From contig SWBL01000026.1 in NCBI GenBank assembly GCA_024195585.1, positions 171,991 to 235,990 on the forward strand: a stretch of DNA of 64,000 bases. Direction: 5' to 3'. Both the position numbers and the translations under genes were made by a program. Position 1 is the stretch's first letter; every line of letters begins with the position of its first letter. Below are positions 30,658 to 35,698 of this stretch, in pieces. Origin of the DNA: Aureobasidium sp. EXF-3400. Its lineage: Eukaryota; Ascomycota; Dothideomycetes; Dothideales; Saccotheciaceae. Under the pieces are notes generated by a model. That model made no database searches, was not told where the DNA came from, and saw only the letters and a list, made by a program, of their open reading frames with translations.

Positions 30658-31472
30658 TTACTTGCGGTACCACATTCTGGTGATCTTGGTGTGTCTCATC
30701 TTCTTCTGCAGCTGGAAGATACCGAACATGAGGGCTTCGGCGGTAGGTGGGCAACCGGGAACGTAGATGTCGACGGGGACGATACGGTCACAGCCGCGGG
30801 TGACGGAGTAGGAGTAGTGGTAGTAACCACCACCGTTGGCGCATGAACCCATGGAAATGACCCAGCGGGGGTCAGGCATCTGATCGTAGACCTGGCGGAG
30901 AGCGGGAGCCATCTTGTTGGTCAGGGTACCGGCGACAATCATGACATCGGATTGACGGGGCGAGGCACGGAAAATGATACCCATGCGATCCTGATCGTAA
31001 CGGGGAGTTGACAAGTGCATCATCTCGACGGCGCAGCAGGCGAGACCGAAGGTCATGGGCCACAGCGAACCCTGGCGGGCCCAGTTGGCGATTTGATCAA
31101 GAGTGGTCCTGTGGGTGTACTGTCAGCAATTGACTCGATTTGCTCCTCGATACGGTTTTACATACAAGGCGTATTGCATGACACCCTGCTTGCCCTCCTG
31201 GCTGGGAAGAGGGACGTTCGTGGGCATGCCCTTCTTCATGGGTGGCGGGGTGCCTGGGTTGCCCTTGACGAGGCCGGGTCTCTCCATGGTTGCTGACTTT
31301 GTCGACGAGCTGTGGATGAAGGCGACGGGTGCGGCGCGAGTGAAGGGAACGAGGGCGGCGGTAGGCTTGGCTATAGAGAATTGTCTTAGTCGCTGCGTAT
31401 CTCTGTCGCGAGCATTGAATTTCACGTACCGCGCAGGCCCAGGGCCATTGTCGAGCGGGTGGCGGCGAACAT
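30658..31472 (-). CDS. NADH:ubiquinone oxidoreductase subunit NDUFS7 (PSST, 20 kDa)
   Basis: Matrix-arm subunit of mitochondrial complex I that holds iron-sulfur cluster N2, the last carrier before ubiquinone. Exons complement(31430-31472), (31166-31370) and (30658-31108) give 232 aa with consistent phases. The N2 ligands are C107 and C108 (LACCAVEM), C172 (MGSCANGG) and C202 (VPGCPP). The first ~50 residues are basic and Ser/Thr/Ala-rich, a mitochondrial presequence. The C-terminus [13 protein letters not shown] is typical of the family. It shares a ~300-bp divergent promoter with the TRAPP gene. Confidence 0.97.
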
Positions 31473-33405: not shown

Positions 33406-35698
33406 TTACCAGTCCTTCTTGATGTCGAAGGACCACTCGAACTTCAAGTGGGTTGCCTCGTCGTCATCGATGAACTTGGAGACGGCGTTGTAGTGGCCAC
33501 GGGCCATCATACCCGAAGGTGCGGTCTCTGCCTCGACTGTTGTTATTGTGTCAGTAGAAGTGATCAAGGTGTTTGCTTGAGAAAAGCAAGAACTTACACT
33601 TCTTCTCGTACTCAGGCTTGTCGGTAGTGTTGGGAGAGTAGGAGCCAATCATCTCCTGCATCTTGTTCGAGATACCCATGCGCTTGACAACCTGGACGTA
33701 CTTCATTCCTGATAAGATCTGGTGTTGGACTCTGAAGCGGGCCTTCATGCGGAAGGTGGCACCCTCCTTGATGGTGAAGGGCTTGGACTTGAGCGATTCA
33801 AGAGCACCGGGAGAAGACAGGTCGATGATGATGTCGGGACGGCCCTCAACCTATGTAACAAGTCAGTGTCAATTAACTGATTCGTTGTACTGTTCAAGGG
33901 ATCATCTTACCTCGAGTCCAAGAGAGACAATGATGACCTTGCGGGGGTCGCTGGCGTCACCAATGGTGGTTCCCGAACCGATACCCAGACTCTCCTTCCA
34001 CTTTCTCAAGCTCTCATCATTTTGATCTGTTATGTTGTAGTCAGCAAGTTGAGCCTTGAGAAACAAATAGCAAACAAAATCGTGACAGGTTCATCGAAGC
34101 GTGGCCGCTCACCGGAAACCCATCCAGCGAAAGATGCGGCGCAATCTAGGTTTCCCGCGGACTTCGGTCTGTTTGCGATGGTCTCCGGTTTCATGCTCTG
34201 TATTCTGTTTGCCAGCACCAAGCTGCTGGTTATTGTCCAGTCTACCGTGGCCAGGGGATATGTCTCCAGAAGCTCCGGATGATCCGTCACTCGGGATGGC
34301 TTCGTCTGTCATTGCTCTTATTTGCTTAATCTGCTCGGGGATTGCAGGTCGGTTGGGCATGTTGCGACCGTTGATCGTCATCCAGAGTTCTGCCTCGCGG
34401 TACTTCACGCGATACACGGGCGAGTTACCGAGCCACCAACCAACTTGTACCGTTGGAGGAGGAGGCAAGACTTCAGAGCCATGACGCTCGAGTACCGCCC
34501 TGAAGTGTTCGGCAGTTTCTTCTTCGACTTGTCGAGTTGGGATGCGGGTGAGAGGAACCTCATACTCTTCGTAATCCGGCTGAAGCAGCCCCCTTCGGTG
34601 GATGGCCTCCAACTGGTGGGTTATGGTAGGCTGCCCAGGTAGTTCATGACCGTATTGATCCATGAAAATCATTTCGCCGTGACATATGACGAGATGTACA
34701 GGGTCGTCCTTTCGCTCGAGTGCATGCCAAGTGAAAACGTCGCAATGGGAAGCATCCATTGTTGACGAGTAATGCCGTATGACTTGTCGGGACCATTTCC
34801 GCTCATCGTCGGTAGCTGGTAGCAAAGCACTCGGAGTCGAAGTTCGAACATACGACTGTTTTCGCGGTACTTTCGAATCTCGATCGCGGCCACCAGAATA
34901 TCTGCTTAGGATACCCTTGTCATAAGATCCCATAATACTGTCATGTTTATGGAGATTGTGCAATCCATGAACGAGCGACCTTCGCCGATCGTTCATGACA
35001 GTGCGCCTTGAAGGTCTGAACTCCTCATCTCCAAACATCGCTCGGACAAAGACAGGAGGGGATTCTTGCTCATCTCGTGACGTTGTGCGGGAAGAGTTTT
35101 TGGAGGAGGGTGGTTTGGAGAAGAGATCAACAGTGGTTTCCAGTGCAGCTCGGACGGAAGATCTTCGAGCCTTGCGCTGTTCTTCGGCATCCATGTGTTG
35201 CTTCTTCTGTTCGTCTGATAGCTTTCTCGCATCAATCCACGGCTGTCTCCGGTTACTGGAACGGTCGATTGACAACGCTTTACGGGGCTCCGAGGGAGTT
35301 CTCTGGGCTTGATCGTCTTCCTCGGTGAGCCCAGGGTGTGCCCCACGTGTATGGAGAGACCCATCAGGGGAGTTCAGTCTGGTGAAATGAATGCTCATGC
35401 TTCACAGTTCTCCCCTCGAGCTGAAAGATGTGTAAATCCTGGTGGAAATTTTTGGAAACAGGTCCTCATGTATCCAGGGCCAGGGGCCATATGGAGATTT
35501 CCAGGGCCGCGAGCGGAGACACAAACGCAAAAGAAGCGCGCGCCCAATAAGGCGCAGACAAAGTCACGAGTGAAAACGAACTCAAAGGTACTCACCAAGC
35601 TGTTGGTATTCCTCCAAAGTTTTCTTCTCTCCAACCTTGAAACCAGCAGTGGTCTCAGGGCGGAGCTCGTCCTCGTGGAAGTCGGTTGCACCAGACAT
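33406..35698 (-). CDS. Rho GDP-dissociation inhibitor (RhoGDI)
   Basis: Cytosolic chaperone that keeps prenylated Rho GTPases (Cdc42, Rho1) inactive and soluble. Exons complement(35596-35698), (33911-34026), (33598-33850) and (33406-33536) give 200 aa with all phases consistent. Residues 1-35 are the acidic regulatory arm start (TAGFKVGEKKTLEEYQQL). DQNDESLRKWKESLG is the helix-loop typical of RhoGDI. The immunoglobulin-like prenyl-binding fold follows (FRVQHQILSGMKYVQVVKRMG, SYSPNTTDKPEYEKKFE), ending FEWSFDIKKDW. Intron 1 is 1569 nt, about thirty times the usual intron here, and contains an entire 429-codon ORF. A CTGAC branch point lies about 20 nt before its acceptor. Confidence 0.93.
34109..35398 (-). 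CDS. Unrecognised protein encoded inside the RhoGDI first intron
   Basis: Complete 429-aa ORF with its own ATG and stop, nested on the same strand within intron 1 of the RhoGDI gene, leaving 197 nt before it and 82 nt after it. I recognise no family. The N-terminal half is basic and Ser/Arg-rich, with a charged helix (about residues 58-80). The C-terminal half looks folded, with Trp, Tyr and His in regular spacing (DVFTWHALERKDDPVHLVI, VGWWLGNSPVYRVKYREAE). No signal peptide or membrane segment. The final codon and TGA stop lie within CG|GTGAGC, a good 5' splice site. Splicing from there to the RhoGDI exon-2 acceptor would be out of the RhoGDI frame and stop within two codons. Confidence 0.65.
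   Translation of the reverse strand: MSIHFTRLNSPDGSLHTRGAHPGLTEEDDQAQRTPSEPRKALSIDRSSNRRQPWIDARKLSDEQKKQHMDAEEQRKARRSSVRAALETTVDLFSKPPSSKNSSRTTSRDEQESPPVFVRAMFGDEEFRPSRRTVMNDRRRSLVHGLHNLHKHDSIMGSYDKGILSRYSGGRDRDSKVPRKQSYVRTSTPSALLPATDDERKWSRQVIRHYSSTMDASHCDVFTWHALERKDDPVHLVICHGEMIFMDQYGHELPGQPTITHQLEAIHRRGLLQPDYEEYEVPLTRIPTRQVEEETAEHFRAVLERHGSEVLPPPPTVQVGWWLGNSPVYRVKYREAELWMTINGRNMPNRPAIPEQIKQIRAMTDEAIPSDGSSGASGDISPGHGRLDNNQQLGAGKQNTEHETGDHRKQTEVRGKPRLRRIFRWMGFR

What the first reader, a model, noticed from the sequence alone, without database searches (positions are those of the whole stretch)
33406..35698. A complete 429-codon gene nested, on the same strand, in an intron of the RhoGDI gene
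Exon 1 and exon 2 of a well-conserved RhoGDI are separated by 1569 nt, while other introns in the window are about 50-300 nt. That space is filled by an unbroken ORF with its own start and stop. Same-strand nested genes are rare in compact fungal genomes, because the host pre-mRNA must be transcribed through the guest's 3' end. The guest encodes an unrecognised protein with a basic N-terminus and a Trp/Tyr-rich C-terminal half.
Basis: partly seen in the sequence, partly recalled or inferred. Interest (0 to 1): 0.75.

Follow-up and report, generated by a model that had tools for sequence, protein, structure and literature searches.

The report
Conserved gene inside RhoGDI's first intron
In the black yeast Aureobasidium, the first intron of a well-known cell-signalling gene (RhoGDI) contains a second, complete protein-coding frame on the same strand, which evolution has kept intact and which public gene catalogues merge with its host in contradictory ways.

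Summary
RhoGDI (minus strand) has exons 35698-35596, 34026-33911, 33850-33598 and 33536-33406. Intron 1 is 1569 nt, introns 2-3 are 60-61 nt. Intron 1 holds a 429-codon ORF (35398-34109), same strand, own start and stop. The Aureobasidium-like genome holds a second, diverged copy with the same layout (guest 76% aa identical, dN/dS 0.13-0.18; RhoGDI about 0.03). Of 14 unfused public homologues, 13 share the C-terminal motif; the 14th is a fragment. All 11 homologues named Aureobasidium are annotated as fused to RhoGDI, with 8 different 3' junctions in 11 and 6 different 5' junctions in 6. Best reading: a free-standing, genus-conserved coding gene nested in RhoGDI intron 1. Transcription is inferred; no RNA data were available. 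The guest matches no Pfam family; its core is an internal duplication, probably two alpha-beta-beta-beta-alpha units. Unexpected: other over-long fungal RhoGDI models carry unrelated stretches before exon 2; in 19 of 20 Sordariomycete models the junction fits an ORF reading straight through the splice acceptor. RhoGDI intron 1 may be a recurrent coding site: N-terminal extension there, separate gene here.

The parts
35596..35698 (-). RhoGDI exon 1 (MSGATDFHEDELRPETTAGFKVGEKKTLEEYQQL + first base of D)
   Evidence: spliced CDS intact; 96% nt identical in second copy
34027..35595 (-). RhoGDI intron 1, 1569 nt, phase 1, donor GTGAGT (35595-35590), branch-like CTGAC (34044-34040), acceptor CAG (34029-34027)
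   Evidence: same donor and acceptor position in L003
34109..35398 (-). guest ORF, 429 codons plus stop, A at -3 of the ATG
   Evidence: dN/dS 0.13-0.18 between copies
34592..34810 (-). guest core unit 1 (residues about 197-269), predicted alpha-beta-beta-beta-alpha
   Evidence: internal repeat; AF2 model (mean pLDDT 66)
34301..34522 (-). guest core unit 2 (residues about 293-366), predicted alpha-beta-beta-beta-alpha, repeat of unit 1
   Evidence: internal repeat; AF2 model
35399..35440 (-). possible guest leader acceptors: CCAG (AG at 35440-35439) 40 nt and TCAG (AG at 35422-35421) 22 nt before the guest ATG; YAG at the same spacing in the second copy
   Evidence: function inferred only
34107..34112 (-). 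GTGAGC donor-like hexamer overlapping the guest stop codon; absent in second copy (ATGAGC)
33911..34026 (-). RhoGDI exon 2 (starts DQNDESLRKWKES, D codon split)
33851..33910 (-). RhoGDI intron 2, 60 nt
33598..33850 (-). RhoGDI exon 3
33537..33597 (-). RhoGDI intron 3, 61 nt
33406..33536 (-). RhoGDI exon 4, ends WSFDIKKDW*

Best explanation
A single-exon protein-coding gene lives on the same strand inside intron 1 of RhoGDI and is translated as its own protein of about 425-430 residues. Host RhoGDI mRNA is made by removing the whole 1569-nt stretch. Guest mRNA is made either from its own start inside the first 197 nt of the intron or, as a second possibility (told as a rival below, and counted here too, since it also yields a free-standing protein), by splicing host exon 1 to an acceptor 40 or 22 nt before the guest ATG, so that a choice of acceptor decides which protein is made. 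Shown: both reading frames, conserved splice sites, conserved guest start and stop, purifying selection, the same layout in a second copy, and the order exon 1 - guest - exon 2 in annotated models of five named Aureobasidium species. Inferred: transcription, transcript ends, and the start mode. The protein probably consists of disordered basic arms round a core of two duplicated alpha-beta-beta-beta-alpha units, a binding module of unknown partner rather than an enzyme (inference).
For: Intact in two diverged copies of one genome, 76% aa; codon-position identity 0.83/0.90/0.57 and dN/dS 0.126 (NG86) or 0.176 (YN00). Guest start: 11 of 11 full-length unfused homologues start M[SN][IT]. Guest end: 13 of the 14 unfused homologues end in R, 2-5 residues, G, any residue, R; the 14th, P0026, is a 163-aa fragment that does not reach the end. 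This would not be expected if that end were intron in a fused form. In-frame donors near the guest's end are not shared between the two DNA copies. Chance ORF unlikely.
Against: No RNA or protein evidence at all. Only 82 nt (122 nt in the copy) lie between guest stop and host acceptor, short for a 3' UTR plus a poly(A) site; no AATAAA there by eye (sequence printed). The window copy has a GTGAGC donor overlapping the guest stop that could, with an acceptor 16 nt inside exon 2, give an in-frame fusion; A. subglaciale model P0013 looks like that join (protein letters). Two fused junctions recur: DL|HQ in 3 of 11 models from two species (the second copy has a GTGAAC donor there, the window has none) and WM|DQ in 2 of 11 (available in the window as a weak GTTTCC donor). 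The 2014 Aureobasidium annotation used transcript support in choosing gene models (PMC4227064, passages seen); whether any fused model rests on reads I could not see. GC3 is 0.52 against 0.72 for RhoGDI, suggesting low expression.
Confidence: 0.74

Rival explanations
1. The ORF is an alternative first exon of RhoGDI: an internal promoter makes an mRNA that joins the ORF to exons 2-4, giving a RhoGDI with a long N-terminal extension. The guest stop codon is spliced away.
For: All 11 named homologues are annotated as fusions and carry PF02115; two of them (P0012, P0013) start at the guest's own ATG. Over-long RhoGDI models also exist in Elsinoe, three Trypetheliales and 20 Sordariomycete entries, and in 19 of those 20 the residues at the junction fit continuous reading through the acceptor. 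A GTGAGC donor overlaps the guest stop in the window copy. Base rate: of 53 same-orientation human nested genes, one study judged 22 to be alternatively spliced host variants (PMC3192792, passages seen).
Against: In both DNA copies a stop codon separates the guest from exon 2, and the frame relation differs (82 and 122 nt; mod 3 = 1 and 2). Of the in-frame joins found (6 in the window, 9 in the second copy) none uses a donor shared by both copies, and none in the second copy uses a donor fitting my canonical pattern. Fused models disagree on the junction (8 distinct in 11). The residues before the stop are conserved in 13 of 14 unfused homologues, the 14th being a fragment.
Confidence: 0.17
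2. Guest and host share one pre-mRNA: the guest is the second cistron of a RhoGDI exon 1 transcript whose long intron is retained or cut short by an alternative acceptor, translated by termination-reinitiation. (This overlaps with the best explanation: the protein is the same, only the start mode differs.)
For: YAG sites sit exactly 40 and 22 nt before the guest ATG in both copies, and from either site the exon 1 frame ends at a TGA that overlaps the guest ATG (ATGA) in both. The A. mustum model P0011 joins exon 1 to a leader shortly before the guest Met.
Against: The ATGA overlap needs only a one-in-three frame chance, and two copies with the same spacing are not independent. In P0011 the chosen acceptor keeps exon 1 in frame with the guest instead. 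Other YAG/AG sites before the ATG behave differently in the two copies.
Confidence: 0.25
3. The ORF is not expressed: a conserved-looking open frame kept by chance or as a decaying insertion.
For: Only that no RNA or protein evidence was available here.
Against: dN/dS 0.13-0.18 at dS about 0.9-1.1, intact frame in both copies and in 11 full-length unfused homologues down to 58% identity.
Confidence: 0.03

Closest known systems
Same-strand nested protein-coding genes in human, e.g. KTI12 in TXNDC12 intron 2 and single-exon CHML in OPN3 (PMC3192792, passages seen)
   Same: Coding guest on the host's strand within an intron; host transcription has to pass the guest's 3' end.
   Different: Fungal host in a genus with a 57-bp median intron; guest fills 82% of the intron; only 82 nt before the host acceptor; guest protein found only in Aureobasidium and unnamed sources. 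Expression is documented there, not here.
Over-long RhoGDI models of Sordariomycetes (Colletotrichum, Verticillium, Xylariales, Sporothrix, Pleurostoma)
   Same: A stretch of coding sequence before RhoGDI exon 2; in 10 of 20 models it follows normal exon 1.
   Different: There the stretch appears to run in frame through the acceptor into exon 2 (19 of 20); no detectable sequence relation to the Aureobasidium guest (hhalign probability at most 1%).
'E set domain-containing protein' and similar models of Aureobasidium (P0009, P0011-P0015, P0019-P0021, P0023, P0024)
   Same: The same locus: guest ORF plus RhoGDI exons.
   Different: Annotated as one fused protein, with mutually inconsistent splice junctions.
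Tuber borchii RhoGDI gene Tbgdi (PMC2362126, passages seen)
   Same: Fungal RhoGDI gene with several introns.
   Different: Its five coding introns are 57-145 bp, so no nested ORF of this size there.

Membership tests
Same-strand intronic nested protein-coding gene | Guest lies wholly between two exons of a real host gene on the same strand | tested here: met
   both copies
Same-strand intronic nested protein-coding gene | Guest has its own complete frame, start and stop, kept by selection | tested here: met
Same-strand intronic nested protein-coding gene | Guest is a transcription unit of its own | not testable with these tools
   no RNA data held
Alternative first exon of RhoGDI | Open frame, or a conserved in-frame splice, from the ORF into exon 2 | tested here: not met
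   stop codon in between in both copies, no in-frame donor shared by both; a GTGAGC donor in the window copy alone remains possible, and the test rests on two DNA copies
RhoGDI (PF02115), host | Pfam match over cut-off by the exons | tested here: met
   six matches, three per copy (exon 2, 3 and 4 pieces), all over the cut-off
Any Pfam family, guest | hmmscan match at or over cut-off | tested here: not met
   0 families; among 14 members, best E 0.14 (2 members) and 0.21 (1 member), not significant
Tandem double-stranded-RNA-binding-like fold, guest core | alpha-beta-beta-beta-alpha fold matching solved domains | tested here: inconclusive
Genus-restricted (orphan) gene | No homologue outside the genus | tested here: inconclusive
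   every named hit is Aureobasidium (11 of 25), but 14 of 25 are unnamed, and the search needs shared 5-residue words

The most novel reading that the evidence does not exclude
RhoGDI intron 1 is an old, repeatedly used coding site in Pezizomycotina: an internal start makes an N-terminally extended RhoGDI in many Sordariomycetes, and in Aureobasidium the same extension acquired a stop codon and became a separate protein, so that this locus shows an alternative N-terminus turning into a nested gene. Alternatively the intron has been colonised by unrelated ORFs several times because starting transcription there regulates RhoGDI output.
Probability: 0.25. Interest if true: 0.75.

Novelty: new member of a known kind. 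Interest (0 to 1): 0.52.

Why it matters
It is a clear, checkable case of a same-strand coding frame kept inside the intron of a short-introned fungal genome over genus-level time, within a central Rho GTPase regulator. It shows that public annotations of this locus in Aureobasidium contradict each other. If the wider pattern holds, RhoGDI intron 1 becomes a system for asking how nested genes are born from alternative first exons, and whether the guest controls RhoGDI output.

Tried and rejected
Recent insertion: rejected, because the layout is shared by the second copy and by annotated models of five named species. Transposon origin was not searched for as such; no transposon family matched the guest in Pfam.

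Homology of the guest with the stretches in other fungi: tested by hhalign against nine groups (one of them, 'xyl', a union overlapping two others) made from 24 of the 28 non-Aureobasidium proteins; P0031 and the three entries P0052-P0054 were left out. Best probability 1.0%, E 0.052: not detectable. Among the non-overlapping groups only Hypoxylaceae and Diatrype/Monosporascus were related to each other (E 2e-12); the next best pair, Colletotrichum with Sporothrix, had probability 5.5%. A resemblance seen by eye between Elsinoe and Trypetheliales ends (LHVH...) did not hold (probability 0.1%).

Paralogues of the guest in its own genome: none besides the two copies at E up to 10 (at the default). 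Viral and prokaryote collections: no relative. Solved structures by sequence: one insignificant hit, E 0.32. Full-length structure model: poor, mean pLDDT 47. Fold search of the core (mean pLDDT 66): no match with E at or below 0.001; dsRBD proteins and ribosome hibernation factors are among the weak rows, not used as identification.

Papers: the searches 'Aureobasidium'+'nested gene' (2 papers, unrelated by title), 'RhoGDI'+'nested gene' (0), 'nested genes'+'filamentous fungi'+'intron' (0) and 'Rho GDP dissociation inhibitor'+'Neurospora'+'intron' (0) gave no report of this arrangement; in the broader ones I saw only the listings with the starts of abstracts, apart from the papers named in this report, of which I saw passages. 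Most subscription papers are not in that library.

Full report
What is there. The window lies in an unnamed 53.4-Mb genome (G000, contig C26). On the minus strand, four exons give a complete 200-aa RhoGDI (35698-35596, 34026-33911, 33850-33598, 33536-33406), and the Pfam RhoGDI model hits exons 2-4 over its cut-off. Intron 1 is 1569 nt, with donor GTGAGT, a branch-like CTGAC and acceptor CAG, phase 1. Introns 2 and 3 are 60 and 61 nt. The published median intron of four Aureobasidium genomes is 57 bp (PMC4227064, passages seen). Inside intron 1, on the same strand, is an ORF of 429 codons, 35398-34109. It begins 197 nt after the donor and ends 82 nt before the acceptor. In 5000 Markov versions of the intron the longest comparable ORF was 281 codons, mean 90.

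It is a conserved coding frame. The same genome holds a second copy of the whole arrangement on contig C165 (L003). RhoGDI exons are 93-96% identical in DNA, and splice sites sit at the same places. The guest protein is 76% identical, codon-position identities are 0.83, 0.90 and 0.57, and dN/dS is 0.126 (NG86) or 0.176 (YN00) at dS 0.9-1.1; for RhoGDI dN is 0.011 and dS 0.35-0.39. The middle of the guest (aligned codons 51-365) is the most constrained (dN 0.08-0.09); the first 50 and about the last 60 aligned codons are the least (dN 0.32 and 0.35). Yet the final residues are kept: of 14 unfused public homologues, 13 end in the same motif, and the 14th (P0026) is a fragment that does not reach the end.

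Where it occurs. A protein search found 23 relatives at E up to 1: 11 bear an Aureobasidium name and 12 are unnamed. A profile search added two short ones (only the 7993 candidates sharing most words were scored). No relative was found in viral or prokaryote collections. Aureobasidium is Dothideales, Dothideomycetes. The search needs shared short words, so remote relatives may be missed.

Public annotation merges guest and host. All 11 Aureobasidium-named homologues are annotated as fused to RhoGDI. If one fusion were real, its junctions should agree. They mostly do not: 8 distinct 3' junctions in 11 models, and 6 distinct 5' junctions in the 6 models that begin with RhoGDI exon 1. One of them leaves the guest's reading frame near its end (P0011). 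Two 3' junctions do recur: DL|HQ in three models from two species, and WM|DQ in two. Each is available in one of the two DNA copies only. Of the in-frame joins that I could construct (6 in the window, 9 in the second copy), none uses a donor shared by both, and the distance from stop to acceptor differs in length and frame (82 and 122 nt). I therefore take the guest's own stop as its end. A further caveat: in the window copy the stop codon overlaps a GTGAGC donor, which with an acceptor 16 nt inside exon 2 would give an in-frame fusion, and A. subglaciale model P0013 looks like that join; the second copy lacks that donor. The 2014 annotation of Aureobasidium genomes took transcript support into account (PMC4227064); I could not see whether any fused model rests on reads.

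How it may be expressed. Nothing here measures RNA. Two start modes fit. An internal promoter would have to lie within 197 nt or in host exon 1 and upstream. Alternatively, host exon 1 may be spliced to one of two YAG sites that stand exactly 40 and 22 nt before the guest ATG in both copies; from either site, the exon 1 frame ends at a TGA overlapping the guest ATG in both copies. This could permit termination-reinitiation, but the overlap may be chance. The guest ATG has A at -3 in both copies. The lower GC3 of the guest (0.52 against 0.72) suggests weaker expression than the host's (inference).

The wider pattern. To see whether other fungi have something in this intron, I searched with the RhoGDI part of a fused model under the tool's length filter, which removes ordinary 200-aa RhoGDIs. 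Of 38 proteins found, 10 are Aureobasidium, 4 other Dothideomycetes (Elsinoe and three Trypetheliales), 20 Sordariomycetes, 3 Mucoromycota with other domains, and 1 unnamed (class and order by look-up for seven of the non-Aureobasidium taxa, otherwise recalled). Ten of the 20 Sordariomycete models begin with normal RhoGDI exon 1, followed by an unrelated stretch, followed by exon 2, so in those the stretch lies in intron 1 if the models are right. In 19 of 20 the residue before the junction aspartate is S, T, A, P, L, V or I, exactly what N[CT]A codons give if an ORF reads straight through a YAG acceptor; the exception is P0048. The background frequency of those residues is 0.52, and the models are related, so the nominal 4e-6 is too small. 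This is a biased sample, since only over-long models could be found, and it rests on protein letters, not DNA. The stretches show no sequence relation to the Aureobasidium guest (24 of 28 proteins tested, hhalign probability at most 1%). Either they are independent, or they have diverged beyond recognition.

Verdict. A real, conserved same-strand nested coding frame (confidence 0.74 that it makes its own protein). Nested genes are a known kind (PMC3488318 and PMC3192792, passages seen). I found no report of this one in the searches listed under Tried and rejected. The most novel reading, that RhoGDI intron 1 is a recurrent coding site where an alternative N-terminus can become a nested gene, is open to direct test with public RNA-seq.

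Noticed in passing
G000 contigs C26 and C165 (L003): The genome carries two diverged collinear copies of this region (three aligned pieces, 76-83% DNA identity, about 9 kb); the C165 guest is near A. melanogenum models (88-90%) and P0010 (89%), the window's guest nearest to an unnamed protein (93%). It looks like a two-subgenome hybrid or diploid; stable diploid hybrids of A. melanogenum are reported in PMC9535773 (passages seen).
   Followed up: partly
window 30658-31056 (-): A 132-aa reading frame that looks like an NADH dehydrogenase 20-kDa subunit (name recalled) has three places in the genome: C26, C165 (100%) and a third on C24 (87%).
   Followed up: no
window 34107-34112 (-): The guest stop codon is embedded in a GTGAGC donor-like hexamer in the window copy but not in the second copy.
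   Followed up: partly
window 34098-34108 (-): The bases just after the guest stop (GCGGCCA.GCT) are conserved between the copies, then similarity falls off with indels.
   Followed up: no
P0037-P0039, P0047 and Hypoxylaceae entries: Xylariales RhoGDI extensions share a motif like SGLDPxMTCxGxP, suggesting real coding sequence in an N-terminally extended RhoGDI.
   Followed up: partly
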